Assembly: GCF_037975245.1 (NCBI RefSeq)
Contig: NC_092572.1
Location: 14,636,269-14,700,268, forward strand
DNA from: Apostichopus japonicus
Lineage: Eukaryota; Echinodermata; Holothuroidea; Aspidochirotida; Stichopodidae
Direction: 5' to 3'
Length of the DNA: 64,000 nt
The position numbers and the translations under genes were made by a program. This document shows positions 3,701-64,000 of this stretch, piece by piece (within the stretch, counting starts at the first letter, position 1; each line of letters begins with the position of its first letter). The notes beneath the pieces are model-generated. The model was given only the letters and a program-made list of their open reading frames with translations. It ran no database searches and had not been told where the DNA came from.

Positions 3701-4731
3701 CCAGGTATTCCAAGTAAATCTTCAGATAAATTTGATGCTGACAGATCCCATGGAAGTCTATTTGTATACTAGGCTGAGTGCAAAATATGTAAAAAATAAC
3801 AACTCCACATCAGATAATATGAATAGGCAATAGTATGACTAGTATGACTAGAGGACAAGTTTGGCAGACAAGTAGTACATATACAGGCACTATATAACCC
3901 ATATAGTGATGCAGTGATAAAACATTAATATCATTGCTTTATACATGGTAGAGCAAGAAAGAGTGCAAAGAGTTTTGAGTAGACATGTAAGCATAGAAGC
4001 AAGATTACGTTACATAACACAAACAACCAGCTATATAGCTTCATTAAGCAAGAAAATGAACAAAAAAACCATCAAAGGTGAGATAGCTGAACAAAAAAAC
4101 AAAAGAGCAGAACTTCCAAACAAACATAACAAACGGCTACATAAAAGTTCCTTATGTTATTGAATGACGGGTTGAGTATTTATAAATAACATAAACACAA
4201 AATATCAAAGATAACACCATCATCTGGATTTCACCAAGCAATAAGGGATATCTTTATCAGTTGGATTTTATGTTGTTGTTGGTAATGCCCAGTGGGGGGG
4301 GGGGGGGGAAATGTGTTGTTCATGGTGTAATTAAGCAAATATTTACTTTGGCATGCCTGGCCAAAGCAATGAAGAGTGAGCTGTATAAACTCAAAGACTT
4401 TATTGTCTGTAGTTTAATGTTTTTGGTTTACTTTTTCCTGTTTTCATTGCATTTACAAAATGCATCTAATTACCTGGTACTTCAACATTTAATTTTGATT
4501 TTTCCATAATTTTGTCAAGGTGAACTAATACAAAGTTACATTGATCATAACTTTTCCATTATATAATCCTCATTTTTTTTCATATAAGTTTATCTTTCAA
4601 GAACGAAAGGTGCAGCATTTAGCGATTTAGCAGAATAAATTGACCCCAGTTTCCCTCCAAACAAGTTCTAATGACATATCTCCTATAAAACAGCAAAATA
4701 AATTATCATCGTTAATCAAGCCAACCCCAAA
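751..4731. other. Intergenic region without a supported gene
   Basis: About 4 kb of AT-rich DNA. The short open frames here (for example 1301-1573 minus, 3041-3349 plus, 3945-4163 plus) show no domain, splice pattern or biased composition that supports coding. Visible simple sequence: a TA run near 1070-1090, a 13-T/13-G junction at 2344-2369, and a 15-G run at 4294-4308. Confidence 0.5.
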
Positions 4732-4737
4732 TTTATT
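4732..4737 (-). promoter_or_regulatory. Polyadenylation signal of the JmjC gene
   Basis: A minus-strand AATAAA (plus TTTATT) lies about 30 bases beyond the TGA of the HDEL-tailed gene, a normal spacing for a short 3' UTR. It is the first canonical hexamer after the stop. Confidence 0.6.
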
Positions 4738-4767
4738 ATCTTTGAATAAAAACTTAGAGGTGATAGG

Positions 4768-5139
4768 TCAAAGTTCATCGTGATCATGATGGTCATGCCC
4801 ATGGCCATGGACTTTAGGTTCCTCCTGGGCCTCTTCTTGCTCCTCTTCTTTGTCTTCAGCCTTTGTGTCAGCCTTTTCTTTATCTTCATCTACTTGTTCA
4901 TCTTGTTTCTCCTCTTCATCTTCTTTAACTTGAGTAACTCCTTCTTTGTCTTCTGCCTCTTCTTTGACATCTTCTATCTCCTCCTCCTCCTCCTCCTTGT
5001 ATTCATAGTTTGGTTGTTCTGGTGGAACTGTTGGCAAGTCTACTCTCCTGGCAAATTCTTTAAGTTGTTCTAGGGTTAAGTTTTCTATTTCTTCTTTGGT
5101 TAGGTAATCTTTTTCATCTATGTCAAATTCATAAAATAT
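4768..5139 (-). CDS. JmjC gene exon 8: EF-hand-like loop, acidic tail, HDEL, stop
   Basis: The acceptor AG lies just right of 5139 and the TGA is at 4770-4768. It encodes residues 386-508. It begins IFYEFDIDEKDYLTKEE, which keeps Asp1, Asp3, a hydrophobic position 8 and Glu12 of an EF-hand but lacks the usual Gly6. A long Glu/Lys/Asp run follows, then a tail of alternating His, Gly and Asp, and HDEL. The high Glu/Lys content makes the opposite strand open too, which is a shadow. Confidence 0.9.
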   Translation of the reverse strand: MFYEFDIDEKDYLTKEEIENLTLEQLKEFARRVDLPTVPPEQPNYEYKEEEEEEIEDVKEEAEDKEGVTQVKEDEEEKQDEQVDEDKEKADTKAEDKEEEQEEAQEEPKVHGHGHDHHDHDEL

Positions 5140-19894: not shown

Positions 19895-20092
19895 ACAGTG
19901 ACATGTACCACTACTAATTTGACATGTACTACTACTAATTCGAAGTGTACTACTACTAATTTGAAGTGTAATACATGTAAAATGTCGCGTACTACTACTT
20001 ATTCGAAGTGTACTACATCTAAAATGTCGCGTACTACTACTAATTCGAAGTGTACTACATCTAAAAAGTCCCGTACTACTACTAAATTGTAG
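19895..20092 (+). repeat. ACT-rich minisatellite with a Thr-rich open frame
   Basis: About nine degenerate units of 18-24 bases such as AAGTGTACTACTACTAATTC and AAAATGTCGCGTACTACTAC. The open frame (repeated TTTNSKC- and TTTSKMSR-like steps) follows from the unit being a multiple of three. There is no signal peptide, partner exon or promoter evidence, so I call it a repeat. Confidence 0.7.
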
Positions 20093-41818: not shown

Positions 41819-41840
41819 ACTGAGATATTAGGCCGATTAA

Positions 41841-44800
41841 GAGAGTCTCGATCATCAGCTCGTACAGTGCGCCGAGCCATCGCGCCACTGTATGGACTGA
41901 GATATTAGGTGGATTAACTAATACTTACAGCTCCCCTTGTAGGCACTTGCTGTAAAAGACGTCATCACCCGGGGTTCGAACCACGGATGCAAAAGAGAGT
42001 CTCGATCATCAGCTCGTACAGTGCGCCGAGCCATCGCGCCACTGTATGGACTGAGATATTAGGTGGATTAACTAATACTTACAGCTCCCCTTGTAGGCAC
42101 TTGCTGTAAAAGACGTCATCACCCGGGGTTCGAACCACGGATGCAAAAGAGAGTCTCGATCATCAGCTCGTACAGTGCGCCGAGCCATCGCGCCACTGTA
42201 TGGACTGAGATATTAGGTGGATTAACTAATACTTACAGCTCCCCTTGTAGGCACTTGCTGTAAAAGACGTCATCACCCGGGGTTCGAACCACGGATGCAA
42301 AAGAGAGTCTCGATCATCAGCTCGTACAGTGCGCCGAGCCATCGCGCCACTGTATGGACTGAGATATTAGGTGGATTAACTAATACTTACAGCTCCCCTT
42401 GTAGGCACTTGCTGTAAAAGACGTCATCACCCGGGGTTCGAACCACGGATGCAAAAGAGAGTCTCGATCATCAGCTCGTACAGTGCGCCGAGCCATCGCG
42501 CCACTGTATGGACTGAGATATTAGGTGGATTAACTAATACTTACAGCTCCCCTTGTAGGCACTTGCTGTAAAAGACGTCATCACCCGGGGTTCGAACCAC
42601 GGATGCAAAAGAGAGTCTCGATCATCAGCTCGTACAGTGCGCCGAGCCATCGCGCCACTGTATGGACTGAGATATTAGGTGGATTAACTAATACTTACAG
42701 CTCCCCTTGTAGGCACTTGCTGTAAAAGACGTCATCACCCGGGGTTCGAACCACGGATGCAAAAGAGAGTCTCGATCATCAGCTCGTACAGTGCGCCGAG
42801 CCATCGCGCCACTGTATGGACTGAGATATTAGGTGGATTAACTAATACTTACAGCTCCCCTTGTAGGCACTTGCTGTAAAAGACGTCATCACCCGGGGTT
42901 CGAACCACGGATGCAAAAGAGAGTCTCGATCATCAGCTCGTACAGTGCGCCGAGCCATCGCGCCACTGTATGGACTGAGATATTAGGTGGATTAACTAAT
43001 ACTTACAGCTCCCCTTGTAGGCACTTGCTGTAAAAGACGTCATCACCCGGGGTTCGAACCACGGATGCAAAAGAGAGTCTCGATCATCAGCTCGTACAGT
43101 GCGCCGAGCCATCGCGCCACTGTATGGACTGAGATATTAGGTGGATTAACTAATACTTACAGCTCCCCTTGTAGGCACTTGCTGTAAAAGACGTCATCAC
43201 CCGGGGTTCGAACCACGGATGCAAAAGAGAGTCTCGATCATCAGCTCGTACAGTGCGCCGAGCCATCGCGCCACTGTATGGACTGAGATATTAGGTGGAT
43301 TAACTAATACTTACAGCTCCCCTTGTAGGCACTTGCTGTAAAAGACGTCATCACCCGGGGTTCGAACCACGGATGCAAAAGAGAGTCTCGATCATCAGCT
43401 CGTACAGTGCGCCGAGCCATCGCGCCACTGTATGGACTGAGATATTAGGTGGATTAACTAATACTTACAGCTCCCCTTGTAGGCACTTGCTGTAAAAGAC
43501 GTCATCACCCGGGGTTCGAACCACGGATGCAAAAGAGAGTCTCGATCATCAGCTCGTACAGTGCGCCGAGCCATCGCGCCACTGTATGGACTGAGATATT
43601 AGGTGGATTAACTAATACTTACAGCTCCCCTTGTAGGCACTTGCTGTAAAAGACGTCATCACCCGGGGTTCGAACCACGGATGCAAAAGAGAGTCTCGAT
43701 CATCAGCTCGTACAGTGCGCCGAGCCATCGCGCCACTGTATGGACTGAGATATTAGGTGGATTAACTAATACTTACAGCTCCCCTTGTAGGCACTTGCTG
43801 TAAAAGACGTCATCACCCGGGGTTCGAACCACGGATGCAAAAGAGAGTCTCGATCATCAGCTCGTACAGTGCGCCGAGCCATCGCGCCACTGTATGGACT
43901 GAGATATTAGGTGGATTAACTAATACTTACAGCTCCCCTTGTAGGCACTTGCTGTAAAAGACGTCATCACCCGGGGTTCGAACCACGGATGCAAAAGAGA
44001 GTCTCGATCATCAGCTCGTACAGTGCGCCGAGCCATCGCGCCACTGTATGGACTGAGATATTAGGTGGATTAACTAATACTTACAGCTCCCCTTGCAGGC
44101 ACTTGCTGTAAAAGACGTCATCACCCGGGGTTCGAACCACGGATGCAAAAGAGAGTCTCGATCATCAGCTCGTACAGTGCGCCGAGCCATCGCGCCACTG
44201 TATGGACTGAGATATTAGGTGGATTAACTAATACTTACAGCTCCCCTTGTAGGCACTTGCTGTAAAAGACGTCATCACCCGGGGTTCGAACCACGGATGC
44301 AAAAGAGAGTCTCGATCATCAGCTCGTACAGTGCGCCGAGCCATCGCGCCACTGTATGGACTGAGATATTAGGTGGATTAACTAATACTTACAGCTCCCC
44401 TTGCAGGCACTTGCTGTAAAAGACGTCATCACCCGGGGTTCGAACCACGGATGCAAAAGAGAGTCTCGATCATCAGCTCGTACAGTGCGCCGAGCCATCG
44501 CGCCACTGTATGGACTGAGATATTAGGTGGATTAACTAATACTTACAGCTCCCCTTGTAGGCACTTGCTGTAAAAGACGTCATCACCCGGGGTTCGAACC
44601 ACGGATGCAAAAGAGAGTCTCGATCATCAGCTCGTACAGTGCGCCGAGCCATCGCGCCACTGTATGGACTGAGATATTAGGTGGATTAACTAATACTTAC
44701 AGCTCCCCTTGCAGGCACTTGCTGTAAAAGACGTCATCACCCGGGGTTCGAACCACGGATGCAAAAGAGAGTCTCGATCATCAGCTCGTACAGTGCGCCG

Positions 44801-47800
44801 AGCCATCGCGCCACTGTATGGACTGAGATATTAGGTGGATTAACTAATACTTACAGCTCCCCTTGCAGGCACTTGCTGTAAAAGACGTCATCACCCGGGG
44901 TTCGAACCACGGATGCAAAAGAGAGTCTCGATCATCAGCTCGTACAGTGCGCCGAGCCATCGCGCCACTGTATGGACTGAGATATTAGGTGGATTAACTA
45001 ATACTTACAGCTCCCCTTGCAGGCACTTGCTGTAAAAGACGTCATCACCCGGGGTTCGAACCACGGATGCAAAAGAGAGTCTCGATCATCAGCTCGTACA
45101 GTGCGCCGAGCCATCGCGCCACTGTATGGACTGAGATATTAGGTGGATTAACTAATACTTACAGCTCCCCTTGCAGGCACTTGCTGTAAAAGACGTCATC
45201 ACCCGGGGTTCGAACCACGGATGCAAAAGAGAGTCTCGATCATCAGCTCGTACAGTGCGCCGAGCCATCGCGCCACTGTATGGACTGAGATATTAGGTGG
45301 ATTAACTAATACTTACAGCTCCCCTTGCAGGCACTTGCTGTAAAAGACGTCATCACCCGGGGTTCGAACCACGGATGCAAAAGAGAGTCTCGATCATCAG
45401 CTCGTACAGTGCGCCGAGCCATCGCGCCACTGTATGGACTGAGATATTAGGTGGATTAACTAATACTTACAGCTCCCCTTGCAGGCACTTGCTGTAAAAG
45501 ACGTCATCACCCGGGGTTCGAACCACGGATGCAAAAGAGAGTCTCGATCATCAGCTCGTACAGTGCGCCGAGCCATCGCGCCACTGTATGGACTGAGATA
45601 TTAGGTGGATTAACTAATACTTACAGCTCCCCTTGCAGGCACTTGCTGTAAAAGACGTCATCACCCGGGGTTCGAACCACGGATGCAAAAGAGAGTCTCG
45701 ATCATCAGCTCGTACAGTGCGCCGAGCCATCGCGCCACTGTATGGACTGAGATATTAGGTGGATTAACTAATACTTACAGCTCCCCTTGTAGGCACTTGC
45801 TGTAAAAGACGTCATCACCCGGGGTTCGAACCACGGATGCAAAAGAGAGTCTCGATCATCAGCTCGTACAGTGCGCCGAGCCATCGCGCCACTGTATGGA
45901 CTGAGATATTAGGTGGATTAACTAATACTTACAGCTCCCCTTGCAGGCACTTGCTGTAAAAGACGTCATCACCCGGGGTTCGAACCACGGATGCAAAAGA
46001 GAGTCTCGATCATCAGCTCGTACAGTGCGCCGAGCCATCGCGCCACTGTATGGACTGAGATATTAGGTGGATTAACTAATACTTACAGCTCCCCTTGCAG
46101 GCACTTGCTGTAAAAGACGTCATCACCCGGGGTTCGAACCACGGATGCAAAAGAGAGTCTCGATCATCAGCTCGTACAGTGCGCCGAGCCATCGCGCCAC
46201 TGTATGGACTGAGATATTAGGTGGATTAACTAATACTTACAGCTCCCCTTGCAGGCACTTGCTGTAAAAGACGTCATCACCCGGGGTTCGAACCACGGAT
46301 GCAAAAGAGAGTCTCGATCATCAGCTCGTACAGTGCGCCGAGCCATCGCGCCACTGTATGGACTGAGATATTAGGTGGATTAACTAATACTTACAGCTCC
46401 CCTTGCAGGCACTTGCTGTAAAAGACGTCATCACCCGGGGTTCGAACCACGGATGCAAAAGAGAGTCTCGATCATCAGCTCGTACAGTGCGCCGAGCCAT
46501 CGCGCCACTGTATGGACTGAGATATTAGGTGGATTAACTAATACTTACAGCTCCCCTTGCAGGCACTTGCTGTAAAAGACGTCATCACCCGGGGTTCGAA
46601 CCACGGATGCAAAAGAGAGTCTCGATCATCAGCTCGTACAGTGCGCCGAGCCATCGCGCCACTGTATGGACTGAGATATTAGGTGGATTAACTAATACTT
46701 ACAGCTCCCCTTGCAGGCACTTGCTGTAAAAGACGTCATCACCCGGGGTTCGAACCACGGATGCAAAAGAGAGTCTCGATCATCAGCTCGTACAGTGCGC
46801 CGAGCCATCGCGCCACTGTATGGACTGAGATATTAGGTGGATTAACTAATACTTACAGCTCCCCTTGTAGGCACTTGCTGTAAAAGACGTCATCACCCGG
46901 GGTTCGAACCACGGATGCAAAAGAGAGTCTCGATCATCAGCTCGTACAGTGCGCCGAGCCATCGCGCCACTGTATGGACTGAGATATTAGGTGGATTAAC
47001 TAATACTTACAGCTCCCCTTGCAGGCACTTGCTGTAAAAGACGTCATCACCCGGGTTCGAACCACGGATGCAAAAGAGAGTCTCGATCATCAGCTCGTAC
47101 AGTGCGCCGAGCCATCGCGCCACTGTATGGACTGAGATATTAGGTGGATTAACTAATACTTACAGCTCCCCTTGCAGGCACTTGCTGTAAAAGACGTCAT
47201 CACCCGGGGTTCGAACCACGGATGCAAAAGAGAGTCTCGATCATCAGCTCGTACAGTGCGCCGAGCCATCGCGCCACTGTATGGACTGAGATATTAGGTG
47301 GATTAACTAATACTTACAGCTCCCCTTGTAGGCACTTGCTGTAAAAGACGTCATCACCCGGGGTTCGAACCACGGATGCAAAAGAGAGTCTCGATCATCA
47401 GCTCGTACAGTGCGCCGAGCCATCGCGCCACTGTATGGACTGAGATATTAGGTGGATTAACTAATACTTACAGCTCCCCTTGCAGGCACTTGCTGTAAAA
47501 GACGTCATCACCCGGGGTTCGAACCACGGATGCAAAAGAGAGTCTCGATCATCAGCTCGTACAGTGCGCCGAGCCATCGCGCCACTGTATGGACTGAGAT
47601 ATTAGGTGGATTAACTAATACTTACAGCTCCCCTTGTAGGCACTTGCTGTAAAAGACGTCATCACCCGGGGTTCGAACCACGGATGCAAAAGAGAGTCTC
47701 GATCATCAGCTCGTACAGTGCGCCGAGCCATCGCGCCACTGTATGGACTGAGATATTAGGTGGATTAACTAATACTTACAGCTCCCCTTGCAGGCACTTG

Positions 47801-50800
47801 CTGTAAAAGACGTCATCACCCGGGGTTCGAACCACGGATGCAAAAGAGAGTCTCGATCATCAGCTCGTACAGTGCGCCGAGCCATCGCGCCACTGTATGG
47901 ACTGAGATATTAGGTGGATTAACTAATACTTACAGCTCCCCTTGTAGGCACTTGCTGTAAAAGACGTCATCACCCGGGGTTCGAACCACGGATGCAAAAG
48001 AGAGTCTCGATCATCAGCTCGTACAGTGCGCCGAGCCATCGCGCCACTGTATGGACTGAGATATTAGGTGGATTAACTAATACTTACAGCTCCCCTTGCA
48101 GGCACTTGCTGTAAAAGACGTCATCACCCGGGGTTCGAACCACGGATGCAAAAGAGAGTCTCGATCATCAGCTCGTACAGTGCGCCGAGCCATCGCGCCA
48201 CTGTATGGACTGAGATATTAGGTGGATTAACTAATACTTACAGCTCCCCTTGCAGGCACTTGCTGTAAAAGACGTCATCACCCGGGGTTCGAACCACGGA
48301 TGCAAAAGAGAGTCTCGATCATCAGCTCGTACAGTGCGCCGAGCCATCGCGCCACTGTATGGACTGAGATATTAGGTGGATTAACTAATACTTACAGCTC
48401 CCCTTGCAGGCACTTGCTGTAAAAGACGTCATCACCCGGGGTTCGAACCACGGATGCAAAAGAGAGTCTCGATCATCAGCTCGTACAGTGCGCCGAGCCA
48501 TCGCGCCACTGTATGGACTGAGATATTAGGTGGATTAACTAATACTTACAGCTCCCCTTGCAGGCACTTGCTGTAAAAGACGTCATCACCCGGGGTTCGA
48601 ACCACGGATGCAAAAGAGAGTCTCGATCATCAGCTCGTACAGTGCGCCGAGCCATCGCGCCACTGTATGGACTGAGATATTAGGTGGATTAACTAATACT
48701 TACAGCTCCCCTTGCAGGCACTTGCTGTAAAAGACGTCATCACCCGGGGTTCGAACCACGGATGCAAAAGAGAGTCTCGATCATCAGCTCGTACAGTGCG
48801 CCGAGCCATCGCGCCACTGTATGGACTGAGATATTAGGTGGATTAACTAATACTTACAGCTCCCCTTGCAGGCACTTGCTGTAAAAGACGTCATCACCCG
48901 GGGTTCGAACCACGGATGCAAAAGAGAGTCTCGATCATCAGCTCGTACAGTGCGCCGAGCCATCGCGCCACTGTATGGACTGAGATATTAGGTGGATTAA
49001 CTAATACTTACAGCTCCCCTTGTAGGCACTTGCTGTAAAAGACGTCATCACCCGGGGTTCGAACCACGGATGCAAAAGAGAGTCTCGATCATCAGCTCGT
49101 ACAGTGCGCCGAGCCATCGCGCCACTGTATGGACTGAGATATTAGGTGGATTAACTAATACTTACAGCTCCCCTTGCAGGCACTTGCTGTAAAAGACGTC
49201 ATCACCCGGGGTTCGAACCACGGATGCAAAAGAGAGTCTCGATCATCAGCTCGTACAGTGCGCCGAGCCATCGCGCCACTGTATGGACTGAGATATTAGG
49301 TGGATTAACTAATACTTACAGCTCCCCTTGTAGGCACTTGCTGTAAAAGACGTCATCACCCGGGGTTCGAACCACGGATGCAAAAGAGAGTCTCGATCAT
49401 CAGCTCGTACAGTGCGCCGAGCCATCGCGCCACTGTATGGACTGAGATATTAGGTGGATTAACTAATACTTACAGCTCCCCTTGCAGGCACTTGCTGTAA
49501 AAGACGTCATCACCCGGGGTTCGAACCACGGATGCAAAAGAGAGTCTCGATCATCAGCTCGTACAGTGCGCCGAGCCATCGCGCCACTGTATGGACTGAG
49601 ATATTAGGTGGATTAACTAATACTTACAGCTCCCCTTGTAGGCACTTGCTGTAAAAGACGTCATCACCCGGGGTTCGAACCACGGATGCAAAAGAGAGTC
49701 TCGATCATCAGCTCGTACAGTGCGCCGAGCCATCGCGCCACTGTATGGACTGAGATATTAGGTGGATTAACTAATACTTACAGCTCCCCTTGCAGGCACT
49801 TGCTGTAAAAGACGTCATCACCCGGGGTTCGAACCACGGATGCAAAAGAGAGTCTCGATCATCAGCTCGTACAGTGCGCCGAGCCATCGCGCCACTGTAT
49901 GGACTGAGATATTAGGTGGATTAACTAATACTTACAGCTCCCCTTGTAGGCACTTGCTGTAAAAGACGTCATCACCCGGGGTTCGAACCACGGATGCAAA
50001 AGAGAGTCTCGATCATCAGCTCGTACAGTGCGCCGAGCCATCGCGCCACTGTATGGACTGAGATATTAGGTGGATTAACTAATACTTACAGCTCCCCTTG
50101 CAGGCACTTGCTGTAAAAGACGTCATCACCCGGGGTTCGAACCACGGATGCAAAAGAGAGTCTCGATCATCAGCTCGTACAGTGCGCCGAGCCATCGCGC
50201 CACTGTATGGACTGAGATATTAGGTGGATTAACTAATACTTACAGCTCCCCTTGCAGGCACTTGCTGTAAAAGACGTCATCACCCGGGGTTCGAACCACG
50301 GATGCAAAAGAGAGTCTCGATCATCAGCTCGTACAGTGCGCCGAGCCATCGCGCCACTGTATGGACTGAGATATTAGGTGGATTAACTAATACTTACAGC
50401 TCCCCTTGTAGGCACTTGCTGTAAAAGACGTCATCACCCGGGGTTCGAACCACGGATGCAAAAGAGAGTCTCGATCATCAGCTCGTACAGTGCGCCGAGC
50501 CATCGCGCCACTGTATGGACTGAGATATTAGGTGGATTAACTAATACTTACAGCTCCCCTTGCAGGCACTTGCTGTAAAAGACGTCATCACCCGGGGTTC
50601 GAACCACGGATGCAAAAGAGAGTCTCGATCATCAGCTCGTACAGTGCGCCGAGCCATCGCGCCACTGTATGGACTGAGATATTAGGTGGATTAACTAATA
50701 CTTACAGCTCCCCTTGTAGGCACTTGCTGTAAAAGACGTCATCACCCGGGGTTCGAACCACGGATGCAAAAGAGAGTCTCGATCATCAGCTCGTACAGTG

Positions 50801-53800
50801 CGCCGAGCCATCGCGCCACTGTATGGACTGAGATATTAGGTGGATTAACTAATACTTACAGCTCCCCTTGCAGGCACTTGCTGTAAAAGACGTCATCACC
50901 CGGGGTTCGAACCACGGATGCAAAAGAGAGTCTCGATCATCAGCTCGTACAGTGCGCCGAGCCATCGCGCCACTGTATGGACTGAGATATTAGGTGGATT
51001 AACTAATACTTACAGCTCCCCTTGCAGGCACTTGCTGTAAAAGACGTCATCACCCGGGGTTCGAACCACGGATGCAAAAGAGAGTCTCGATCATCAGCTC
51101 GTACAGTGCGCCGAGCCATCGCGCCACTGTATGGACTGAGATATTAGGTGGATTAACTAATACTTACAGCTCCCCTTGTAGGCACTTGCTGTAAAAGACG
51201 TCATCACCCGGGGTTCGAACCACGGATGCAAAAGAGAGTCTCGATCATCAGCTCGTACAGTGCGCCGAGCCATCGCGCCACTGTATGGACTGAGATATTA
51301 GGTGGATTAACTAATACTTACAGCTCCCCTTGTAGGCACTTGCTGTAAAAGACGTCATCACCCGGGGTTCGAACCACGGATGCAAAAGAGAGTCTCGATC
51401 ATCAGCTCGTACAGTGCGCCGAGCCATCGCGCCACTGTATGGACTGAGATATTAGGTGGATTAACTAATACTTACAGCTCCCCTTGCAGGCACTTGCTGT
51501 AAAAGACGTCATCACCCGGGGTTCGAACCACGGATGCAAAAGAGAGTCTCGATCATCAGCTCGTACAGTGCGCCGAGCCATCGCGCCACTGTATGGACTG
51601 AGATATTAGGTGGATTAACTAATACTTACAGCTCCCCTTGCAGGCACTTGCTGTAAAAGACGTCATCACCCGGGGTTCGAACCACGGATGCAAAAGAGAG
51701 TCTCGATCATCAGCTCGTACAGTGCGCCGAGCCATCGCGCCACTGTATGGACTGAGATATTAGGTGGATTAACTAATACTTACAGCTCCCCTTGTAGGCA
51801 CTTGCTGTAAAAGACGTCATCACCCGGGGTTCGAACCACGGATGCAAAAGAGAATCTCGATCATCAGCTCGTACAGTGCGCCGAGCCATCGCGCCACTGT
51901 ATGGACTGAGATATTAGGTGGATTAACTAATACTTACAGCTCCCCTTGTAGGCACTTGCTGTAAAAGACGTCATCACCCGGGGTTCGAACCACGGATGCA
52001 AAAGAGAGTCTCGATCATCAGCTCGTACAGTGCGCCGAGCCATCGCGCCACTGTATGGACTGAGATATTAGGTGGATTAACTAATACTTACAGCTCCCCT
52101 TGTAGGCACTTGCTGTAAAAGACGTCATCACCCGGGGTTCGAACCACGGATGCAAAAGAGAGTCTCGATCATCAGCTCGTACAGTGCGCCGAGCCATCGC
52201 GCCACTGTATGGACTGAGATATTAGGTGGATTAACTAATACTTACAGCTCCCCTTGCAGGCACTTGCTGTAAAAGACGTCATCACCCGGGGTTCGAACCA
52301 CGGATGCAAAAGAGAGTCTCGATCATCAGCTCGTACAGTGCGCCGAGCCATCGCGCCACTGTATGGACTGAGATATTAGGTGGATTAACTAATACTTACA
52401 GCTCCCCTTGCAGGCACTTGCTGTAAAAGACGTCATCACCCGGGGTTCGAACCACGGATGCAAAAGAGAGTCTCGATCATCAGCTCGTACAGTGCGCCGA
52501 GCCATCGCGCCACTGTATGGACTGAGATATTAGGTGGATTAACTAATACTTACAGCTCCCCTTGCAGGCACTTGCTGTAAAAGACGTCATCACCCGGGGT
52601 TCGAACCACGGATGCAAAAGAGAGTCTCGATCATCAGCTCGTACAGTGCGCCGAGCCATCGCGCCACTGTATGGACTGAGATATTAGGTGGATTAACTAA
52701 TACTTACAGCTCCCCTTGCAGGCACTTGCTGTAAAAGACGTCATCACCCGGGGTTCGAACCACGGATGCAAAAGAGAGTCTCGATCATCAGCTCGTACAG
52801 TGCGCCGAGCCATCGCGCCACTGTATGGACTGAGATATTAGGTGGATTAACTAATACTTACAGCTCCCCTTGTAGGCACTTGCTGTAAAAGACGTCATCA
52901 CCCGGGGTTCGAACCACGGATGCAAAAGAGAGTCTCGATCATCAGCTCGTACAGTGCGCCGAGCCATCGCGCCACTGTATGGACTGAGATATTAGGTGGA
53001 TTAACTAATACTTACAGCTCCCCTTGCAGGCACTTGCTGTAAAAGACGTCATCACCCGGGGTTCGAACCACGGATGCAAAAGAGAGTCTCGATCATCAGC
53101 TCGTACAGTGCGCCGAGCCATCGCGCCACTGTATGGACTGAGATATTAGGTGGATTAACTAATACTTACAGCTCCCCTTGTAGGCACTTGCTGTAAAAGA
53201 CGTCATCACCCGGGGTTCGAACCACGGATGCAAAAGAGAGTCTCGATCATCAGCTCGTACAGTGCGCCGAGCCATCGCGCCACTGTATGGACTGAGATAT
53301 TAGGTGGATTAACTAATACTTACAGCTCCCCTTGCAGGCACTTGCTGTAAAAGACGTCATCACCCGGGGTTCGAACCACGGATGCAAAAGAGAGTCTCGA
53401 TCATCAGCTCGTACAGTGCGCCGAGCCATCGCGCCACTGTATGGATTGAGATATTAGGTGGATTAACTAATACTTACAGCTCCCCTTGTAGGCACTTGCT
53501 GTAAAAGACGTCATCACCCGGGGTTCGAACCACGGATGCAAAAGAGAGTCTCGATCATCAGCTCGTACAGTGCGCCGAGCCATCGCGCCACTGTATGGAC
53601 TGAGATATTAGGTGGATTAACTAATACTTACAGCTCCCCTTGCAGGCACTTGCTGTAAAAGACGTCATCACCCGGGGTTCGAACCACGGATGCAAAAGAG
53701 AGTCTCGATCATCAGCTCGTACAGTGCGCCGAGCCATCGCGCCACTGTATGGACTGAGATATTAGGTGGATTAACTAATACTTACAGCTCCCCTTGCAGG

Positions 53801-56800
53801 CACTTGCTGTAAAAGACGTCATCACCCGGGGTTCGAACCACGGATGCAAAAGAGAGTCTCGATCATCAGCTCGTACAGTGCGCCGAGCCATCGCGCCACT
53901 GTATGGACTGAGATATTAGGTGGATTAACTAATACTTACAGCTCCCCTTGTAGGCACTTGCTGTAAAAGACGTCATCACCCGGGGTTCGAACCACGGATG
54001 CAAAAGAGAGTCTCGATCATCAGCTCGTACAGTGCGCCGAGCCATCGCGCCACTGTATGGACTGAGATATTAGGTGGATTAACTAATACTTACAGCTCCC
54101 CTTGCAGGCACTTGCTGTAAAAGACGTCATCACCCGGGGTTCGAACCACGGATGCAAAAGAGAGTCTCGATCATCAGCTCGTACAGTGCGCCGAGCCATC
54201 GCGCCACTGTATGGACTGAGATATTAGGTGGATTAACTAATACTTACAGCTCCCCTTGCAGGCACTTGCTGTAAAAGACGTCATCACCCGGGGTTCGAAC
54301 CACGGATGCAAAAGAGAGTCTCGATCATCAGCTCGTACAGTGCGCCGAGCCATCGCGCCACTGTATGGACTGAGATATTAGGTGGATTAACTAATACTTA
54401 CAGCTCCCCTTGCAGGCACTTGCTGTAAAAGACGTCATCACCCGGGGTTCGAACCACGGATGCAAAAGAGAGTCTCGATCATCAGCTCGTACAGTGCGCC
54501 GAGCCATCGCGCCACTGTATGGACTGAGATATTAGGTGGATTAACTAATACTTACAGCTCCCCTTGTAGGCACTTGCTGTAAAAGACGTCATCACCCGGG
54601 GTTCGAACCACGGATGCAAAAGAGAGTCTCGATCATCAGCTCGTACAGTGCGCCGAGCCATCGCGCCACTGTATGGACTGAGATATTAGGTGGATTAACT
54701 AATACTTACAGCTCCCCTTGCAGGCACTTGCTGTAAAAGACGTCATCACCCGGGGTTCGAACCACGGATGCAAAAGAGAGTCTCGATCATCAGCTCGTAC
54801 AGTGCGCCGAGCCATCGCGCCACTGTATGGACTGAGATATTAGGTGGATTAACTAATACTTACAGCTCCCCTTGTAGGCACTTGCTGTAAAAGACGTCAT
54901 CACCCGGGGTTCGAACCACGGATGCAAAAGAGAGTCTCGATCATCAGCTCGTACAGTGCGCCGAGCCATCGCGCCACTGTATGGACTGAGATATTAGGTG
55001 GATTAACTAATACTTACAGCTCCCCTTGCAGGCACTTGCTGTAAAAGACGTCATCACCCGGGGTTCGAACCACGGATGCAAAAGAGAGTCTCGATCATCA
55101 GCTCGTACAGTGCGCCGAGCCATCGCGCCACTGTATGGACTGAGATATTAGGTGGATTAACTAATACTTACAGCTCCCCTTGTAGGCACTTGCTGTAAAA
55201 GACGTCATCACCCGGGGTTCGAACCACGGATGCAAAAGAGAGTCTCGATCATCAGCTCGTACAGTGCGCCGAGCCATCGCGCCACTGTATGGACTGAGAT
55301 ATTAGGTGGATTAACTAATACTTACAACTCCCCTTGTAGGCACTTGCTGTAAAAGACGTCATCACCCGGGGTTCGAACCACGGATGCAAAAGAGAGTCTC
55401 GATCATCAGCTCGTACAGTGCGCCGAGCCATCGCGCCACTGTATGGACTGAGATATTAGGTGGATTAACTAATACTTACAGCTCCCCTTGCAGGCACTTG
55501 CTGTAAAAGACGTCATCACCCGGGGTTCGAACCACGGATGCAAAAGAGAGTCTCGATCATCAGCTCGTACAGTGCGCCGAGCCATCGCGCCACTGTATGG
55601 ACTGAGATATTAGGTGGATTAACTAATACTTACAGCTCCCCTTGTAGGCACTTGCTGTAAAAGACGTCATCACCCGGGGTTCGAACCACGGATGCAAAAG
55701 AGAGTCTCGATCATCAGCTCGTACAGTGCGCCGAGCCATCGCGCCACTGTATGGACTGAGATATTAGGTGGATTAACTAATACTTACAGCTCCCCTTGCA
55801 GGCACTTGCTGTAAAAGACGTCATCACCCGGGGTTCGAACCACGGATGCAAAAGAGAGTCTCGATCATCAGCTCGTACAGTGCGCCGAGCCATCGCGCCA
55901 CTGTATGGACTGAGATATTAGGTGGATTAACTAATACTTACAGCTCCCCTTGTAGGCACTTGCTGTAAAAGACGTCATCACCCGGGGTTCGAACCACGGA
56001 TGCAAAAGAGAGTCTCGATCATCAGCTCGTACAGTGCGCCGAGCCATCGCGCCACTGTATGGACTGAGATATTAGGTGGATTAACTAATACTTACAGCTC
56101 CCCTTGCAGGCACTTGCTGTAAAAGACGTCATCACCCGGGGTTCGAACCACGGATGCAAAAGAGAGTCTCGATCATCAGCTCGTACAGTGCGCCGAGCCA
56201 TCGCGCCACTGTATGGACTGAGATATTAGGTGGATTAACTAATACTTACAGCTCCCCTTGCAGGCACTTGCTGTAAAAGACGTCATCACCCGGGGTTCGA
56301 ACCACGGATGCAAAAGAGAGTCTCGATCATCAGCTCGTACAGTGCGCCGAGCCATCGCGCCACTGTATGGACTGAGATATTAGGTGGATTAACTAATACT
56401 TACAGCTCCCCTTGTAGGCACTTGCTGTAAAAGACGTCATCACCCGGGGTTCGAACCACGGATGCAAAAGAGAGTCTCGATCATCAGCTCGTACAGTGCG
56501 CCGAGCCATCGCGCCACTGTATGGACTGAGATATTAGGTGGATTAACTAATACTTACAGCTCCCCTTGCAGGCACTTGCTGTAAAAGACGTCATCACCCG
56601 GGGTTCGAACCACGGATGCAAAAGAGAGTCTCGATCATCAGCTCGTACAGTGCGCCGAGCCATCGCGCCACTGTATGGACTGAGATATTAGGTGGATTAA
56701 CTAATACTTACAGCTCCCCTTGCAGGCACTTGCTGTAAAAGACGTCATCACCCGGGGTTCGAACCACGGATGCAAAAGAGAGTCTCGATCATCAGCTCGT

Positions 56801-59800
56801 ACAGTGCGCCGAGCCATCGCGCCACTGTATGGACTGAGATATTAGGTGGATTAACTAATACTTACAGCTCCCCTTGTAGGCACTTGCTGTAAAAGACGTC
56901 ATCACCCGGGGTTCGAACCACGGATGCAAAAGAGAGTCTCGATCATCAGCTCGTACAGTGCGCCGAGCCATCGCGCCACTGTATGGACTGAGATATTAGG
57001 TGGATTAACTAATACTTACAGCTCCCCTTGCAGGCACTTGCTGTAAAAGACGTCATCACCCGGGGTTCGAACCACGGATGCAAAAGAGAGTCTCGATCAT
57101 CAGCTCGTACAGTGCGCCGAGCCATCGCGCCACTGTATGGACTGAGATATTAGGTGGATTAACTAATACTTACAGCTCCCCTTGTAGGCACTTGCTGTAA
57201 AAGACGTCATCACCCGGGGTTCGAACCACGGATGCAAAAGAGAGTCTCGATCATCAGCTCGTACAGTGCGCCGAGCCATCGCGCCACTGTATGGACTGAG
57301 ATATTAGGTGGATTAACTAATACTTACAGCTCCCCTTGCAGGCACTTGCTGTAAAAGACGTCATCACCCGGGGTTCGAACCACGGATGCAAAAGAGAGTC
57401 TCGATCATCAGCTCGTACAGTGCGCCGAGCCATCGCGCCACTGTATGGACTGAGATATTAGGTGGATTAACTAATACTTACAGCTCCCCTTGTAGGCACT
57501 TGCTGTAAAAGACGTCATCACCCTGGGTTCGAACCACGGATGCAAAAGAGAGTCTCGATCATCAGCTCGTACAGTGCGCCGAGCCATCGCGCCACTGTAT
57601 GGACTGAGATATTAGGTGGATTAACTAATACTTACAGCTCCCCTTGCAGGCACTTGCTGTAAAAGACGTCATCACCCGGGGTTCGAACCACGGATGCAAA
57701 AGAGAGTCTCGATCATCAGCTCGTACAGTGCGCCGAGCCATCGCGCCACTGTATGGACTGAGATATTAGGTGGATTAACTAATACTTACAGCTCCCCTTG
57801 CAGGCACTTGCTGTAAAAGACGTCATCACCCGGGGTTCGAACCACGGATGCAAAAGAGAGTCTCGATCATCAGCTCGTACAGTGCGCCGAGCCATCGCGC
57901 CACTGTATGGACTGAGATATTAGGTGGATTAACTAATACTTACAGCTCCCCTTGTAGGCACTTGCTGTAAAAGACGTCATCACCCGGGGTTCGAACCACG
58001 GATGCAAAAGAGAATCTCGATCATCAGCTCGTACAGTGCGCCGAGCCATCGCGCCACTGTATGGACTGAGATATTAGGTGGATTAACTAATACTTACAGC
58101 TCCCCTTGCAGGCACTTGCTGTAAAAGACGTCATCACCCGGGGTTCGAACCACGGATGCAAAAGAGAGTCTCGATCATCAGCTCGTACAGTGCGCCGAGC
58201 CATCGCGCCACTGTATGGACTGAGATATTAGGTGGATTAACTAATACTTACAGCTCCCCTTGTAGGCACTTGCTGTAAAAGACGTCATCACCCGGGGTTC
58301 GAACCACGGATGCAAAAGAGAGTCTCGATCATCAGCTCGTACAGTGCGCCGAGCCATCGCGCCACTGTATGGACTGAGATATTAGGTGGATTAACTAATA
58401 CTTACAGCTCCCCTTGTAGGCACTTGCTGTAAAAGACGTCATCACCCGGGGTTCGAACCACGGATGCAAAAGAGAGTCTCGATCATCAGCTCGTACAGTG
58501 CGCCGAGCCATCGCGCCACTGTATGGACTGAGATATTAGGTGGATTAACTAATACTTACAGCTCCCCTTGCAGGCACTTGCTGTAAAAGACGTCATCACC
58601 CGGGGTTCGAACCACGGATGCAAAAGAGAGTCTCGATCATCAGCTCGTACAGTGCGCCGAGCCATCGCGCCACTGTATGGACTGAGATATTAGGTGGATT
58701 AACTAATACTTACAGCTCCCCTTGTAGGCACTTGCTGTAAAAGACGTCATCACCCGGGGTTCGAACCACGGATGCAAAAGAGAGTCTCGATCATCAGCTC
58801 GTACAGTGCGCCGAGCCATCGCGCCACTGTATGGACTGAGATATTAGGTGGATTAACTAATACTTACAGCTCCCCTTGCAGGCACTTGCTGTAAAAGACG
58901 TCATCACCCGGGGTTCGAACCACGGATGCAAAAGAGAGTCTCGATCATCAGCTCGTACAGTGCGCCGAGCCATCGCGCCACTGTATGGACTGAGATATTA
59001 GGTGGATTAACTAATACTTACAGCTCCCCTTGCAGGCACTTGCTGTAAAAGACGTCATCACCCGGGGTTCGAACCACGGATGCAAAAGAGAGTCTCGATC
59101 ATCAGCTCGTACAGTGCGCCGAGCCATCGCGCCACTGTATGGACTGAGATATTAGGTGGATTAACTAATACTTACAGCTCCCCTTGTAGGCACTTGCTGT
59201 AAAAGACGTCATCACCCGGGGTTCGAACCACGGATGCAAAAGAGAATCTCGATCATCAGCTCGTACAGTGCGCCGAGCCATCGCGCCACTGTATGGACTG
59301 AGATATTAGGTGGATTAACTAATACTTACAGCTCCCCTTGCAGGCACTTGCTGTAAAAGACGTCATCACCCGGGGTTCGAACCACGGATGCAAAAGAGAG
59401 TCTCGATCATCAGCTCGTACAGTGCGCCGAGCCATCGCGCCACTGTATGGACTGAGATATTAGGTGGATTAACTAATACTTACAGCTCCCCTTGTAGGCA
59501 CTTGCTGTAAAAGACGTCATCACCCGGGGTTCGAACCACGGATGCAAAAGAGAGTCTCGATCATCAGCTCGTACAGTGCGCCGAGCCATCGCGCCACTGT
59601 ATGGACTGAGATATTAGGTGGATTAACTAATACTTACAGCTCCCCTTGCAGGCACTTGCTGTAAAAGACGTCATCACCCGGGGTTCGAACCACGGATGCA
59701 AAAGAGAGTCTCGATCATCAGCTCGTACAGTGCGCCGAGCCATCGCGCCACTGTATGGACTGAGATATTAGGTGGATTAACTAATACTTACAGCTCCCCT

Positions 59801-62800
59801 TGCAGGCACTTGCTGTAAAAGACGTCATCACCCGGGGTTCGAACCACGGATGCAAAAGAGAGTCTCGATCATCAGCTCGTACAGTGCGCCGAGCCATCGC
59901 GCCACTGTATGGACTGAGATATTAGGTGGATTAACTAATACTTACAGCTCCCCTTGTAGGCACTTGCTGTAAAAGACGTCATCACCCGGGGTTCGAACCA
60001 CGGATGCAAAAGAGAGTCTCGATCATCAGCTCGTACAGTGCGCCGAGCCATCGCGCCACTGTATGGACTGAGATATTAGGTGGATTAACTAATACTTACA
60101 GCTCCCCTTGCAGGCACTTGCTGTAAAAGACGTCATCACCCGGGGTTCGAACCACGGATGCAAAAGAGAGTCTCGATCATCAGCTCGTACAGTGCGCCGA
60201 GCCATCGCGCCACTGTATGGACTGAGATATTAGGTGGATTAACTAATACTTACAGCTCCCCTTGTAGGCACTTGCTGTAAAAGACGTCATCACCCGGGGT
60301 TCGAACCACGGATGCAAAAGAGAGTCTCGATCATCAGCTCGTACAGTGCGCCGAGCCATCGCGCCACTGTATGGACTGAGATATTAGGTGGATTAACTAA
60401 TACTTACAGCTCCCCTTGCAGGCACTTGCTGTAAAAGACGTCATCACCCGGGGTTCGAACCACGGATGCAAAAGAGAGTCTCGATCATCAGCTCGTACAG
60501 TGCGCCGAGCCATCGCGCCACTGTATGGACTGAGATATTAGGTGGATTAACTAATACTTACAGCTCCCCTTGTAGGCACTTGCTGTAAAAGACGTCATCA
60601 CCCGGGGTTCGAACCACGGATGCAAAAGAGAGTCTCGATCATCAGCTCGTACAGTGCGCCGAGCCATCGCGCCACTGTATGGACTGAGATATTAGGTGGA
60701 TTAACTAATACTTACAGCTCCCCTTGCAGGCACTTGCTGTAAAAGACGTCATCACCCGGGGTTCGAACCACGGATGCAAAAGAGAGTCTCGATCATCAGC
60801 TCGTACAGTGCGCCGAGCCATCGCGCCACTGTATGGACTGAGATATTAGGTGGATTAACTAATACTTACAGCTCCCCTTGCAGGCACTTGCTGTAAAAGA
60901 CGTCATCACCCGGGGTTCGAACCACGGATGCAAAAGAGAGTCTCGATCATCAGCTCGTACAGTGCGCCGAGCCATCGCGCCACTGTATGGACTGAGATAT
61001 TAGGTGGATTAACTAATACTTACAGCTCCCCTTGTAGGCACTTGCTGTAAAAGACGTCATCACCCGGGGTTCGAACCACGGATGCAAAAGAGAGTCTCGA
61101 TCATCAGCTCGTACAGTGCGCCGAGCCATCGCGCCACTGTATGGACTGAGATATTAGGTGGATTAACTAATACTTACAGCTCCCCTTGTAGGCACTTGCT
61201 GTAAAAGACGTCATCACCCGGGGTTCGAACCACGGATGCAAAAGAGAGTCTCGATCATCAGCTCGTACAGTGCGCCGAGCCATCGCGCCACTGTATGGAC
61301 TGAGATATTAGGTGGATTAACTAATACTTACAGCTCCCCTTGCAGGCACTTGCTGTAAAAGACGTCATCACCCGGGGTTCGAACCACGGATGCAAAAGAG
61401 AGTCTCGATCATCAGCTCGTACAGTGCGCCGAGCCATCGCGCCACTGTATGGACTGAGATATTAGGTGGATTAACTAATACTTACAGCTCCCCTTGTAGG
61501 CACTTGCTGTAAAAGACGTCATCACCCGGGGTTCGAACCACGGATGCAAAAGAGAGTCTCGATCATCAGCTCGTACAGTGCGCCGAGCCATCGCGCCACT
61601 GTATGGACTGAGATATTAGGTGGATTAACTAATACTTACAGCTCCCCTTGCAGGCACTTGCTGTAAAAGACGTCATCACCCGGGGTTCGAACCACGGATG
61701 CAAAAGAGAGTCTCGATCATCAGCTCGTACAGTGCGCCGAGCCATCGCGCCACTGTATGGACTGAGATATTAGGTGGATTAACTAATACTTACAGCTCCC
61801 CTTGTAGGCACTTGCTGTAAAAGACGTCATCACCCGGGGTTCGAACCACGGATGCAAAAGAGAGTCTCGATCATCAGCTCGTACAGTGCGCCGAGCCATC
61901 GCGCCACTGTATGGACTGAGATATTAGGTGGATTAACTAATACTTACAGCTCCCCTTGCAGGCACTTGCTGTAAAAGACGTCATCACCCGGGGTTCGAAC
62001 CACGGATGCAAAAGAGAGTCTCGATCATCAGCTCGTACAGTGCGCCGAGCCATCGCGCCACTGTATGGACTGAGATATTAGGTGGATTAACTAATACTTA
62101 CAGCTCCCCTTGCAGGCACTTGCTGTAAAAGACGTCATCACCCGGGGTTCGAACCACGGATGCAAAAGAGAGTCTCGATCATCAGCTCGTACAGTGCGCC
62201 GAGCCATCGCGCCACTGTATGGACTGAGATATTAGGTGGATTAACTAATACTTACAGCTCCCCTTGTAGGCACTTGCTGTAAAAGACGTCATCACCCGGG
62301 GTTCGAACCACGGATGCAAAAGAGAGTCTCGATCATCAGCTCGTACAGTGCGCCGAGCCATCGCGCCACTGTATGGACTGAGATATTAGGTGGATTAACT
62401 AATACTTACAGCTCCCCTTGCAGGCACTTGCTGTAAAAGACGTCATCACCCGGGGTTCGAACCACGGATGCAAAAGAGAGTCTCGATCATCAGCTCGTAC
62501 AGTGCGCCGAGCCATCGCGCCACTGTATGGACTGAGATATTAGGTGGATTAACTAATACTTACAGCTCCCCTTGTAGGCACTTGCTGTAAAAGACGTCAT
62601 CACCCGGGGTTCGAACCACGGATGCAAAAGAGAGTCTCGATCATCAGCTCGTACAGTGCGCCGAGCCATCGCGCCACTGTATGGACTGAGATATTAGGTG
62701 GATTAACTAATACTTACAGCTCCCCTTGCAGGCACTTGCTGTAAAAGACGTCATCACCCGGGGTTCGAACCACGGATGCAAAAGAGAGTCTCGATCATCA

Positions 62801-64000
62801 GCTCGTACAGTGCGCCGAGCCATCGCGCCACTGTATGGACTGAGATATTAGGTGGATTAACTAATACTTACAGCTCCCCTTGTAGGCACTTGCTGTAAAA
62901 GACGTCATCACCCGGGGTTCGAACCACGGATGCAAAAGAGAATCTCGATCATCAGCTCGTACAGTGCGCCGAGCCATCGCGCCACTGTATGGACTGAGAT
63001 ATTAGGTGGATTAACTAATACTTACAGCTCCCCTTGTAGGCACTTGCTGTAAAAGACGTCATCACCCGGGGTTCGAACCACGGATGCAAAAGAGAGTCTC
63101 GATCATCAGCTCGTACAGTGCGCCGAGCCATCGCGCCACTGTATGGACTGAGATATTAGGTGGATTAACTAATACTTACAGCTCCCCTTGCAGGCACTTG
63201 CTGTAAAAGACGTCATCACCCGGGGTTCGAACCACGGATGCAAAAGAGAGTCTCGATCATCAGCTCGTACAGTGCGCCGAGCCATCGCGCCACTGTATGG
63301 ACTGAGATATTAGGTGGATTAACTAATACTTACAGCTCCCCTTGTAGGCACTTGCTGTAAAAGACGTCATCACCCGGGGTTCGAACCACGGATGCAAAAG
63401 AGAGTCTCGATCATCAGCTCGTACAGTGCGCCGAGCCATCGCGCCACTGTATGGACTGAGATATTAGGTGGATTAACTAATACTTACAGCTCCCCTTGCA
63501 GGCACTTGCTGTAAAAGACGTCATCACCCGGGGTTCGAACCACGGATGCAAAAGAGAGTCTCGATCATCAGCTCGTACAGTGCGCCGAGCCATCGCGCCA
63601 CTGTATGGACTGAGATATTAGGTGGATTAACTAATACTTACAGCTCCCCTTGCAGGCACTTGCTGTAAAAGACGTCATCACCCGGGGTTCGAACCACGGA
63701 TGCAAAAGAGAGTCTCGATCATCAGCTCGTACAGTGCGCCGAGCCATCGCGCCACTGTATGGACTGAGATATTAGGTGGATTAACTAATACTTACAGCTC
63801 CCCTTGTAGGCACTTGCTGTAAAAGACGTCATCACCCGGGGTTCGAACCACGGATGCAAAAGAGAGTCTCGATCATCAGCTCGTACAGTGCGCCGAGCCA
63901 TCGCGCCACTGTATGGACTGAGATATTAGGTGGATTAACTAATACTTACAGCTCCCCTTGCAGGCACTTGCTGTAAAAGACGTCATCACCCGGGGTTCGA
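41841..64000 (-). repeat. 154-bp satellite, about 144 head-to-tail copies, tRNA-like on the minus strand
   Basis: The anchor ACCCGGGGTTCGAACC recurs every 154 bases from 41967 to 63988 (143 intervals minus one base), continuing past the window edge. One 1-base deletion (near 47053) accounts for the single offset. Copies are almost identical. One site (CCCCTTGYAGGC) is mixed, about 65 T and 79 C by my count. Rare changes are seen at 51854, 53446, 55326, 57524, 58014, 59246 and 62942. On the minus strand each unit has TGGCTCGGCGC (A-box-like), a 4-bp GCTC/GAGC D-arm-like pairing, and GGTTCGAACCC (perfect B box), with no matching acceptor stem. The unit length is not a multiple of three and no long frame runs through it. 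Confidence 0.97.

What the first reader, a model, noticed from the sequence alone, without database searches (positions are those of the whole stretch)
41841..64000. Large, highly homogeneous satellite whose unit carries a tRNA-like Pol III head
The sequence shows about 144 near-identical 154-bp units. On the minus strand each has an A-box-like TGGCTCGGCGC, a D-arm-like GCTC/GAGC pair and a perfect B box GGTTCGAACCC. The T arm has mismatches and no acceptor stem pairs, so these are not tRNA genes. The likely origin is a SINE head or tRNA relic that was amplified in tandem. If the boxes still recruit TFIIIC, the array would be a very dense cluster of such sites, which elsewhere act as boundaries or chromatin organisers. 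A TTTT between the boxes would probably stop transcription early.
Basis: partly seen in the sequence, partly recalled or inferred. Interest (0 to 1): 0.75.

Follow-up and report, generated by a model that had tools for sequence, protein, structure and literature searches.

The report
Satellite DNA from tRNA-like mobile repeat

Summary
In detail: window 41839-64000 is 144 nearly identical 154-bp units; by sampling, the array is about 94-102 kb.

The unit belongs to a satellite (type A, 165/154 bp); one 22-mer of it has 28,606 exact copies. On 13 of 23 chromosomes its arrays were found in one region each, with one small outlier, and at the end of a 14th. A sister satellite (type B, ~149 bp) is 55-60% identical.

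Dispersed relatives exist: ~160-bp monomers as few-copy loci or short tandem runs, many inside a ~4-kb non-coding repeat. They are more tRNA-like: of 45 analysable (47 in all), 40 have a perfect A box and 37 a B box; one scores 28.9 bits on Rfam tRNA (cutoff 29), though only 2 of 13 loci gave such a match. A tree makes A and B separate clades among them.

Both satellites have G at A-box position 14, so Pol III transcription is doubtful. Type A keeps its B box; TFIIIC binding is untested. Centromere function is inferred.

The parts
41839..64000 (-). Type A satellite array, 154-bp units, 144 units in the window; by sampling it ends between C12:14,772,000 and 14,780,000
41819..41838 (-). Partial diverged unit at the left edge (AATCGGCCTAATATCTCAGT), the GG variant also seen in type A on C16, C22 and C21
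42031..42041 (-). Best A-box register TGGCGCGATGG of one unit (one mismatch to TRGYNNARNNG: A14 is G)
42023..42033 (-).
41972..41982 (-). B box GGTTCGAACCC that goes with the A box at 42031-42041; T stem 3 of 5 pairs
41991..41994 (-). TTTT between the two boxes, a possible Pol III stop
   Evidence: CTCTTTTGC present in 153 of 163 distinct sampled type A units
41950..41961 (-). Place of the 11-bp difference between the 165- and 154-bp forms; the 165 form has TCTTTTGCCGA followed by TCTTTT, so the 154 form looks like a slip deletion between 6-bp direct repeats (inference)
41940..41940 (+). The one common C/T polymorphism of the array (first unit); first 14 units all T, then mixed

Best explanation
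The array is part of a major satellite DNA (type A) of an echinoderm genome, most likely Apostichopus japonicus. Its monomer descends from a tRNA-derived repeat unit that is dispersed in the same genome, as few-copy loci and as short tandem runs inside a ~4-kb non-coding repeat element. Two lines of this unit, A and B, were amplified into long homogeneous arrays by unequal exchange or rolling-circle amplification. Type A arrays now lie in one region on most chromosomes and most likely serve as (peri)centromeric heterochromatin. The Pol III boxes are inherited: B is still perfect in type A, A is changed at its most constant letter. The satellite is therefore more likely a structural repeat, possibly a dense set of TFIIIC-binding sites, than a set of Pol III genes. 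Shown: array, family, distribution by sampling, homology of A, B and the dispersed monomers, tRNA-likeness of dispersed monomers. Inferred: centromere role, way of amplification, direction of descent, any TFIIIC binding, species name.
For: Abundance: 18,157 + 10,449 exact copies of a 22-mer plus one letter. One region per chromosome: the 98 rare-variant hits, all listed, lie in one region on each of C2, C4, C5, C8, C11, C12, C14, C19, C22; one search adds C9, add C16, C20, C23 (C23 start also read); the right end of C21 has it too. Sister satellite B on C3, C7, C34 and near the left end of C21, aligned over the whole monomer (E 1.5e-5). Dispersed monomers: 635 first-look candidates, 40 scored, 155 matches on 14 contigs. 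Shared element flanks: 3' flank in 15 and 5' flank in 10 of 20 fetched regions, some cut to show one side only. tRNA-likeness: Rfam tRNA 28.9 bits (E 0.022) and 25.6 bits (E 0.17) in 2 of 13 loci; of 45 analysable monomers (47 in all) perfect A box 40, B box 37, T stem mean 3.9 of 5 against 2.2 for permuted strands, D stem 4 of 4 in 30. Tree of 37 rows: A and B each one clade with 100/100 support.
Against: No CENP-A or cytology, so the centromere role rests on position alone. The regions are sampled, not read through: on C5, C9 and C19 the places found are 2.7-6 Mb apart. C1 gave no A, B or C at 19 points and both ends, C10 none at 16 points and both ends; C13, C15, C17, C18 none at a few points near the ends; the starts of C13, C15 and C21 read N. 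A small array lies off its region, C12 9.75-9.77 Mb. Types A and B give no Rfam tRNA match, and 11 of 13 dispersed loci give none for their monomers. The acceptor is weak: 3.3 of 7 pairs against 2.4 permuted. B lies at contig ends on C7 and C21, so it may be subtelomeric there. The fork that joins A with the element monomers is weak (79/84). One C copy on C6 also has G at position 14, so the change may be older than either satellite.
Confidence: 0.72

Rival explanations
1. Active Pol III or TFIIIC satellite: the boxes are kept by selection, recruit TFIIIC (as ETC sites or with short Pol III transcripts), and this shapes the centromere or its borders.
For: B box perfect in the type A consensus; GGTTCGAACCC intact in 126 and GGTTCGANNCC in 140 of 163 distinct sampled units. 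B-box columns are relatively conserved between types (6 of 157 and 8 of 158 circular shifts reach it; both boxes together 8 of 157 and 9 of 158). One region per chromosome.
Against: Position 14 of the A box is G in both satellites although 40 of 45 analysable dispersed monomers keep a perfect A box. Type B has C for T54 of the B box. TTTT lies between the boxes. Within type A neither box ranks among the most conserved windows (43rd and 44th of 154). A-box columns alone are not conserved between types beyond chance (44 of 157 and 53 of 158 shifts; the alignment puts the type B A box 3 columns out of register).
Confidence: 0.17
2. The satellites came first, and the dispersed short arrays are satellite pieces scattered or captured by a repeat element.
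For: Monomers occur outside the element too, as few-copy loci (L180 one copy, L181 and L182 between one and two and a half) and in a 3.5-copy run beside telomeric repeats on C6.
Against: The dispersed monomers are the more tRNA-like and more diverse ones; A and B sit on long stems (0.37 and 0.23) with little inner depth.
Confidence: 0.12
3. The A and B boxes are chance matches in a dyad-rich satellite; hairpins (TACAGTGGCGC/GCGCACTGTA, TTACAGC/GCTGTAA, TATTAG/CTAATA) are what matters.
For: Single-stranded DNA folds better than 196 of 200 shuffles (z -1.99). A plus B as good as observed in 21 of 3000 shuffled units. No Rfam tRNA match in types A and B.
Against: Homologous dispersed monomers are tRNA-like by covariance model (2 of 13 loci) and by boxes and arms. 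RNA of the box strand folds no better than shuffles (z -0.42).
Confidence: 0.05

Closest known systems
Amphibian tRNA-related tandem families: OAX/satellite I (Xenopus), PolIII/TAN (Cynops), Rana/polIII, Hy/polIII (Hydromantes), as told in passages of PMC10702118
   Same: Tandem repeats said to hold a tRNA-like segment (for Hy/polIII that paper doubts it); Rana/polIII is up to 10% of certain genomes.
   Different: That paper calls the published SINE-satellite examples inconclusive. Here dispersed monomers and a carrier element are found in the same genome, the host is an echinoderm, and the arrays lie in one region per chromosome.
SINE-derived satellites (sSats) of squamate reptiles, PMC10702118 (abstract and passages)
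   Same: Tandem repeats that arose from dispersed repeats with tRNA heads, several times over.
   Different: By that paper sSats are less amplified and subtelomeric, and the main snake unit holds only the 3' part of the head with box B. Here the whole head is in the unit, the copy number is satellite-scale, and most regions are internal.
Tetris / TIR-220 of Drosophila virilis, PMC4079207 (abstract)
   Same: Internal tandem repeats of a non-autonomous dispersed element served as building blocks of satellite arrays.
   Different: Tetris is a foldback DNA transposon; its abstract does not call TIR-220 tRNA-like. Here no terminal inverted repeats were recognised and the element class is unknown.
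Schistosoma Sm-alpha SINE-like elements with hammerhead ribozymes, PMC2770079 (passages)
   Same: tRNA-related repeats of very high copy number; a title in its reference list (Ferbeyre et al.) calls them satellite DNA.
   Different: No hammerhead match here.
Pol III-dependent heterochromatin barrier at fission yeast centromere 1, PMC2040200 (listing and start of abstract only)
   Different: Those are tRNA genes (recalled); these are degenerate units and no binding has been tested.

Membership tests
tRNA gene | Cloverleaf found by tRNA programs | tested here: not met
   ARAGORN 0 genes; no Rfam tRNA match in type A or B; acceptor 2 of 7 pairs, T stem 3 of 5 in type A
tRNA-related satellite DNA | Long homogeneous tandem arrays with high copy number | tested here: met
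tRNA-related satellite DNA | Monomer homologous to a tRNA-derived sequence | tested here: met
   Homology A-B-C-D; tRNA covariance score in 2 of 13 loci of dispersed relatives; boxes and arms
SINE | tRNA-derived head with A and B boxes | tested here: met
   For dispersed monomers: 40 and 37 of 45 analysable, 47 in all
SINE | Single insertions with simple-repeat tail and target-site duplications, LINE-like 3' end | tested here: inconclusive
   Three few-copy loci looked at by eye, no tail or duplication recognised; many copies lie in tandem inside a larger element
Centromeric satellite | One region per chromosome | tested here: inconclusive
   13 chromosomes with one region each plus one contig end; one small outlier on C12; type A not found on 9 chromosomes; regions sampled, not read through
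Centromeric satellite | CENP-A occupancy | not testable with these tools
   No ChIP data
Centromeric satellite with CENP-B box | NTTCGNNNNANNCGGGN | tested here: not met
   Best match in each of six consensus units has 3 mismatches; motif recalled
Extra-TFIIIC site | B box bound by TFIIIC without Pol III | not testable with these tools
   Sequence only: B box intact in type A, one change in type B
Hammerhead-ribozyme satellite | Hammerhead core | tested here: not met
   No Rfam match at E up to 10 on type A; no hammerhead among the 5 matches on type B

The most novel reading that the evidence does not exclude
A tRNA-derived mobile unit has twice founded the centromeric satellites of a sea cucumber, and the retained B box makes each type A centromere a very dense TFIIIC platform: Pol III transcription was switched off by the A14 to G change found in both satellites, while TFIIIC binding was kept in type A and is used to organise centromere chromatin.
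Probability: 0.1. Interest if true: 0.85.

Novelty: new variant of a known kind. Interest (0 to 1): 0.58.

Why it matters
Links between tRNA-headed dispersed repeats and full-scale satellites have been hard to show; the reptile paper calls earlier published cases inconclusive. Here several stages stand in one genome: few-copy tRNA-like loci, short runs inside a dispersed element, a 3.5-copy run, and two long satellites. It gives candidate centromere DNA for an aquaculture species; my searches of the held library for sea cucumber, A. japonicus or Holothuria with satellite or centromere terms showed no such report. The A14 change makes a clean test: do satellites lose Pol III transcription while keeping TFIIIC binding?

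Tried and rejected
Rejected: tRNA genes. Hammerhead satellite: the string CTGATGA drew my attention, but I saw no GAAA partner by eye and there is no Rfam match. CENP-B box. Origin from the tandem tRNA-Lys(TTT) cluster on C3, whose 168-174 bp spacing is similar: of the 15 loci compared, the 10 hits printed were all in L062, none in the tRNA-Lys loci. The head at the start of C7 first looked like one dispersed SINE (one match) but is the end of a type B array. Dispersed near-copies of type A: searches gave 40 and 4 hits; by position and by the upstream letters they fit type A arrays or their edges, except C7:26077987 (3 mismatches; the reversed control also gave 3 hits). Most of these places were not read.

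Results against function or against my reading: box conservation within type A, RNA folding of the box strand, no Rfam tRNA in types A and B nor in 11 of 13 dispersed loci, weak acceptor. The between-type conservation tests rest on an alignment that puts the type B A box 3 columns out of register, 12 of 53 rows were dropped for lack of the TATTAG anchor. In one search, 51 of 53 rows could be analysed, which favours rows that have the boxes; 45 of 47 dispersed and type C rows are among them, and all but the C consensus were taken as nearly full-length BLAST matches to the type C query. In one search, 24 of 46 dispersed rows were drawn at random. The anticodon-like loop CTGAAGA (recalled as that of tRNA-Phe) is in 13 of 45 and was not pursued. 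Element ends: the 5' end rests on one pair of copies (C11, C4) and the 3' end on one pair (C11, C22); no terminal inverted repeat or target duplication was recognised by eye, and no frame longer than 140 residues was found.

A slip of mine: one search printed positions 41,701 too high; only its spacings and unit counts are used. One search printed matches for part of its loci only; redid the comparison for 114 sampled loci (13 matched).
Full report
What is there. The window ends in a head-to-tail array, 41839-64000, of 154-bp units: 143.9 copies at 99%, 144 by a site scan with one spacing of 153. Of 139 whole units, 6 different sequences occur. One C/T site carries nearly all the variation; the first 14 units are all T and the rest mixed. 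The left edge keeps 20 bases of a diverged variant. Sampled stretches show array up to C12:14,772,000 and none at 14,780,000, so it is about 94-102 kb if continuous.

Where it comes from. The window is G000:C12:14636269-14700268 of a 671.58-Mb assembly in 35 contigs. It has 23 chromosome-size contigs (lengths) and a 16,099-bp mitochondrial contig whose first half reads cox1-nad4L-cox2-atp6-cox3-nad3-nad4 under the echinoderm code (gene names and the statement that the order is echinoderm-like are mine). The published A. japonicus assembly has 671.60 Mb, 23 chromosomes of 18.21-46.02 Mb and 34 scaffolds (PMC10344927, passages). Here the smallest and largest chromosome contigs are 18.20 and 46.04 Mb, close but not identical. 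I infer that species. That paper reports SINEs at 0.02%; words beginning with satellite or centromere do not occur in its main text.

The family. The unit exists in a 165-bp and a 154-bp form that differ by 11 bp between two TCTTTT repeats. A 22-mer around the B box, with one further letter, has 18,157 forward and 10,449 reverse exact matches, that is at least about 4.4 Mb. To see where the arrays lie I searched for rare variants. In one search all 98 hits (all listed) fell in one region on each of C2, C4, C5, C8, C11, C12, C14, C19 and C22. (134 hits, 100 listed) adds C9; (7 and 40 hits, all listed) add C16, C20 and C23; (371 hits, 100 listed) adds no contig. Extent of the places found: C2 17.15-20.40, C4 10.2-10.95, C5 13.07-16.87, C8 27.6-28.2, C9 21.35-27.3, C11 21.1-22.3, C12 14.68-17.0, C14 19.7-20.0, C16 35.8, C19 9.3-12.2, C20 24.75-25.04, C22 10.2-11.0 Mb, and the first 30 kb of C23. 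These are extents, not proven continuous blocks. The right end of C21 has type A too, but not its 21.0 or 21.3 Mb. One small array lies apart, C12 9.75-9.77 Mb. Type A was not found on C1, C3, C6, C7, C10, C13, C15, C17 and C18. C1 was read at 19 points and both ends and C10 at 16 points and both ends, without A, B or C; the others at few points.

A sister satellite. The first 1.6 kb of C7 is an array of 148-149 bp units that align with type A over the whole unit (E 1.5e-5, 60%). The same type B is at C3 20.02-20.25 Mb and in the 3 kb of C34 that I read; a 156-bp variant is at 60-62 kb of C21. On C7 it reaches 12 kb but not 40 kb; on C3 it is absent at 19.0, 19.7, 20.6, 21.2 and 22.0 Mb; on C21 at 0.2, 0.6 and 1.2 Mb. 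So B is internal on C3 and near an end on C7 and C21.

Dispersed relatives. A third form (C, ~162 bp) is a 3.5-copy run at C6:29.92-30.47 kb beside (AACCCT)n. Searching with it gave 635 first-look candidates; the 40 scored gave 155 matches on 14 contigs: C1, C4-C8, C10-C12, C16 and C19-C22 (not all are listed). I fetched 20 regions at 18 of these loci. Fifteen of 20 share one 3' flank and 10 of 20 one 5' flank (the source copy counted), some regions having been cut to one side; L193, L194, L195 and L200 show neither, L195 being array almost throughout. Longer stretches of three copies put the element at about 4 kb: C11 copy 3034-6985 in my joined coordinates, the run included. It has no frame longer than 140 residues and two further, different A+B-box pairs 3' of the run. 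Shuffles in blocks of two letters gave a mean of 0.0 such pairs in 300.

How tRNA-like. Type A: no ARAGORN gene, no Rfam match, acceptor 2 of 7, T stem 3 of 5. Type B: T stem 5 of 5 and acceptor 6 of 7 on C7, T stem 3 of 5 on C21, and no Rfam tRNA match on C7. Dispersed: of 13 loci scanned, a full copy at a 1.3-copy locus on C6 (L181) scores 28.9 bits on the Rfam tRNA model (cutoff 29, E 0.022) and a run monomer (L189) 25.6 bits (E 0.17); the monomers of the other 11 gave no match at E up to 1. Of 47 dispersed and C monomers 45 could be analysed: 40 have a perfect TRGYNNARNNG and 37 a GGTTCRANNC; the D stem is 4 of 4 in 30 and 3 of 4 in 15; the T stem has 3.9 of 5 pairs against 2.2 for permuted strands; the acceptor in the canonical register has 3.3 of 7 against 2.4 permuted, and 3.5 when shifted by 3. 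So the head is tRNA-derived, with the acceptor its weakest part. In a tree of 37 rows A and B are each one clade (100/100), B beside C and few-copy loci, A beside the element monomers, the last two forks weak (79/84). I read that as two amplifications from a dispersed pool.

Do the boxes still work? Against: position 14 of the A box is G in 235 of 236 type A and 77 of 77 type B units readable by the scan, and in 144 of 144 of the window, while most dispersed monomers keep A; one C copy has G too. TTTT lies between the boxes. Type B has GGCTCGAGACC. Within type A the boxes rank 43rd and 44th of 154 windows in conservation. For: the B box is intact in 126 of 163 distinct sampled type A units, and its columns are relatively conserved between types. 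My reading is relic boxes with possible TFIIIC affinity.

Likely working. One region per chromosome, high homogeneity and a unit near nucleosome length are what centromeric or pericentromeric satellites often show (recalled); this is inference. The unit is rich in dyads and folds as DNA better than 196 of 200 shuffles; as RNA the box strand does not stand out (z -0.42), the other strand slightly (z -1.85).

Compared with what is known. Amphibian Pol III tandem families and squamate SINE-derived satellites are the nearest (PMC10702118, abstract and passages), and Tetris/TIR-220 is the nearest route from element to satellite (PMC4079207, abstract). This is a new variant: tRNA-derived, carried by a long non-coding element, amplified into two satellites, and in type A mostly in one internal region per chromosome. 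That no sea cucumber centromeric satellite is in print rests only in the held library.

Noticed in passing
G000:C3:17760905-17776764 (L065-L076): Large tandem cluster of tRNA-Lys(TTT) genes, mostly 168-174 bp apart, on both strands; up to 17 genes in one 3-kb locus, and lone copies elsewhere on C3 and on C15.
   Followed up: partly
window 22592-24976: 26 copies of a 92-bp G-rich tandem repeat (AGGGGGAGGGGGCAG...), with strong GC skew.
   Followed up: no
window 12052-12385 and 19905-20085: Small tandem repeats of 92 bp (3.5 copies) and 42/21 bp (4.3 copies).
   Followed up: no
window 28213-28554 (-): Reverse transcriptase fragment (Pfam RVT_1, E 1e-7), apparently a LINE remnant.
   Followed up: partly
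window 32848 (-) and 8839 (-): B-box-like sites with an upstream A-box-like stretch (AAGCCTAGTGGTTAACGC...; GTGGTCAAGTGGTTAAG...), perhaps other tRNA-headed SINEs; neither passes the strict A+B scan.
   Followed up: no
L181 1669-1740: A different tRNA-like repeat (Rfam tRNA 53.4 bits) right beside a dispersed monomer on C6.
   Followed up: no
C1 start (L047), C6:22-28 kb (L157), C7 right end (L100): A ~204-bp tandem repeat shared by three chromosome ends (79-97% identical), likely subtelomeric.
   Followed up: partly
C11 element 5' and 3' parts, L064, L206, L207: A ~145-bp repeat (TGACCCCAAATGACCTTTGACC...) near both ends of the dispersed element and elsewhere; its relation to the element is unclear.
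   Followed up: partly
C1:14200000 (L091): A 68-bp tandem repeat on C1, where no type A or B was found.
   Followed up: no
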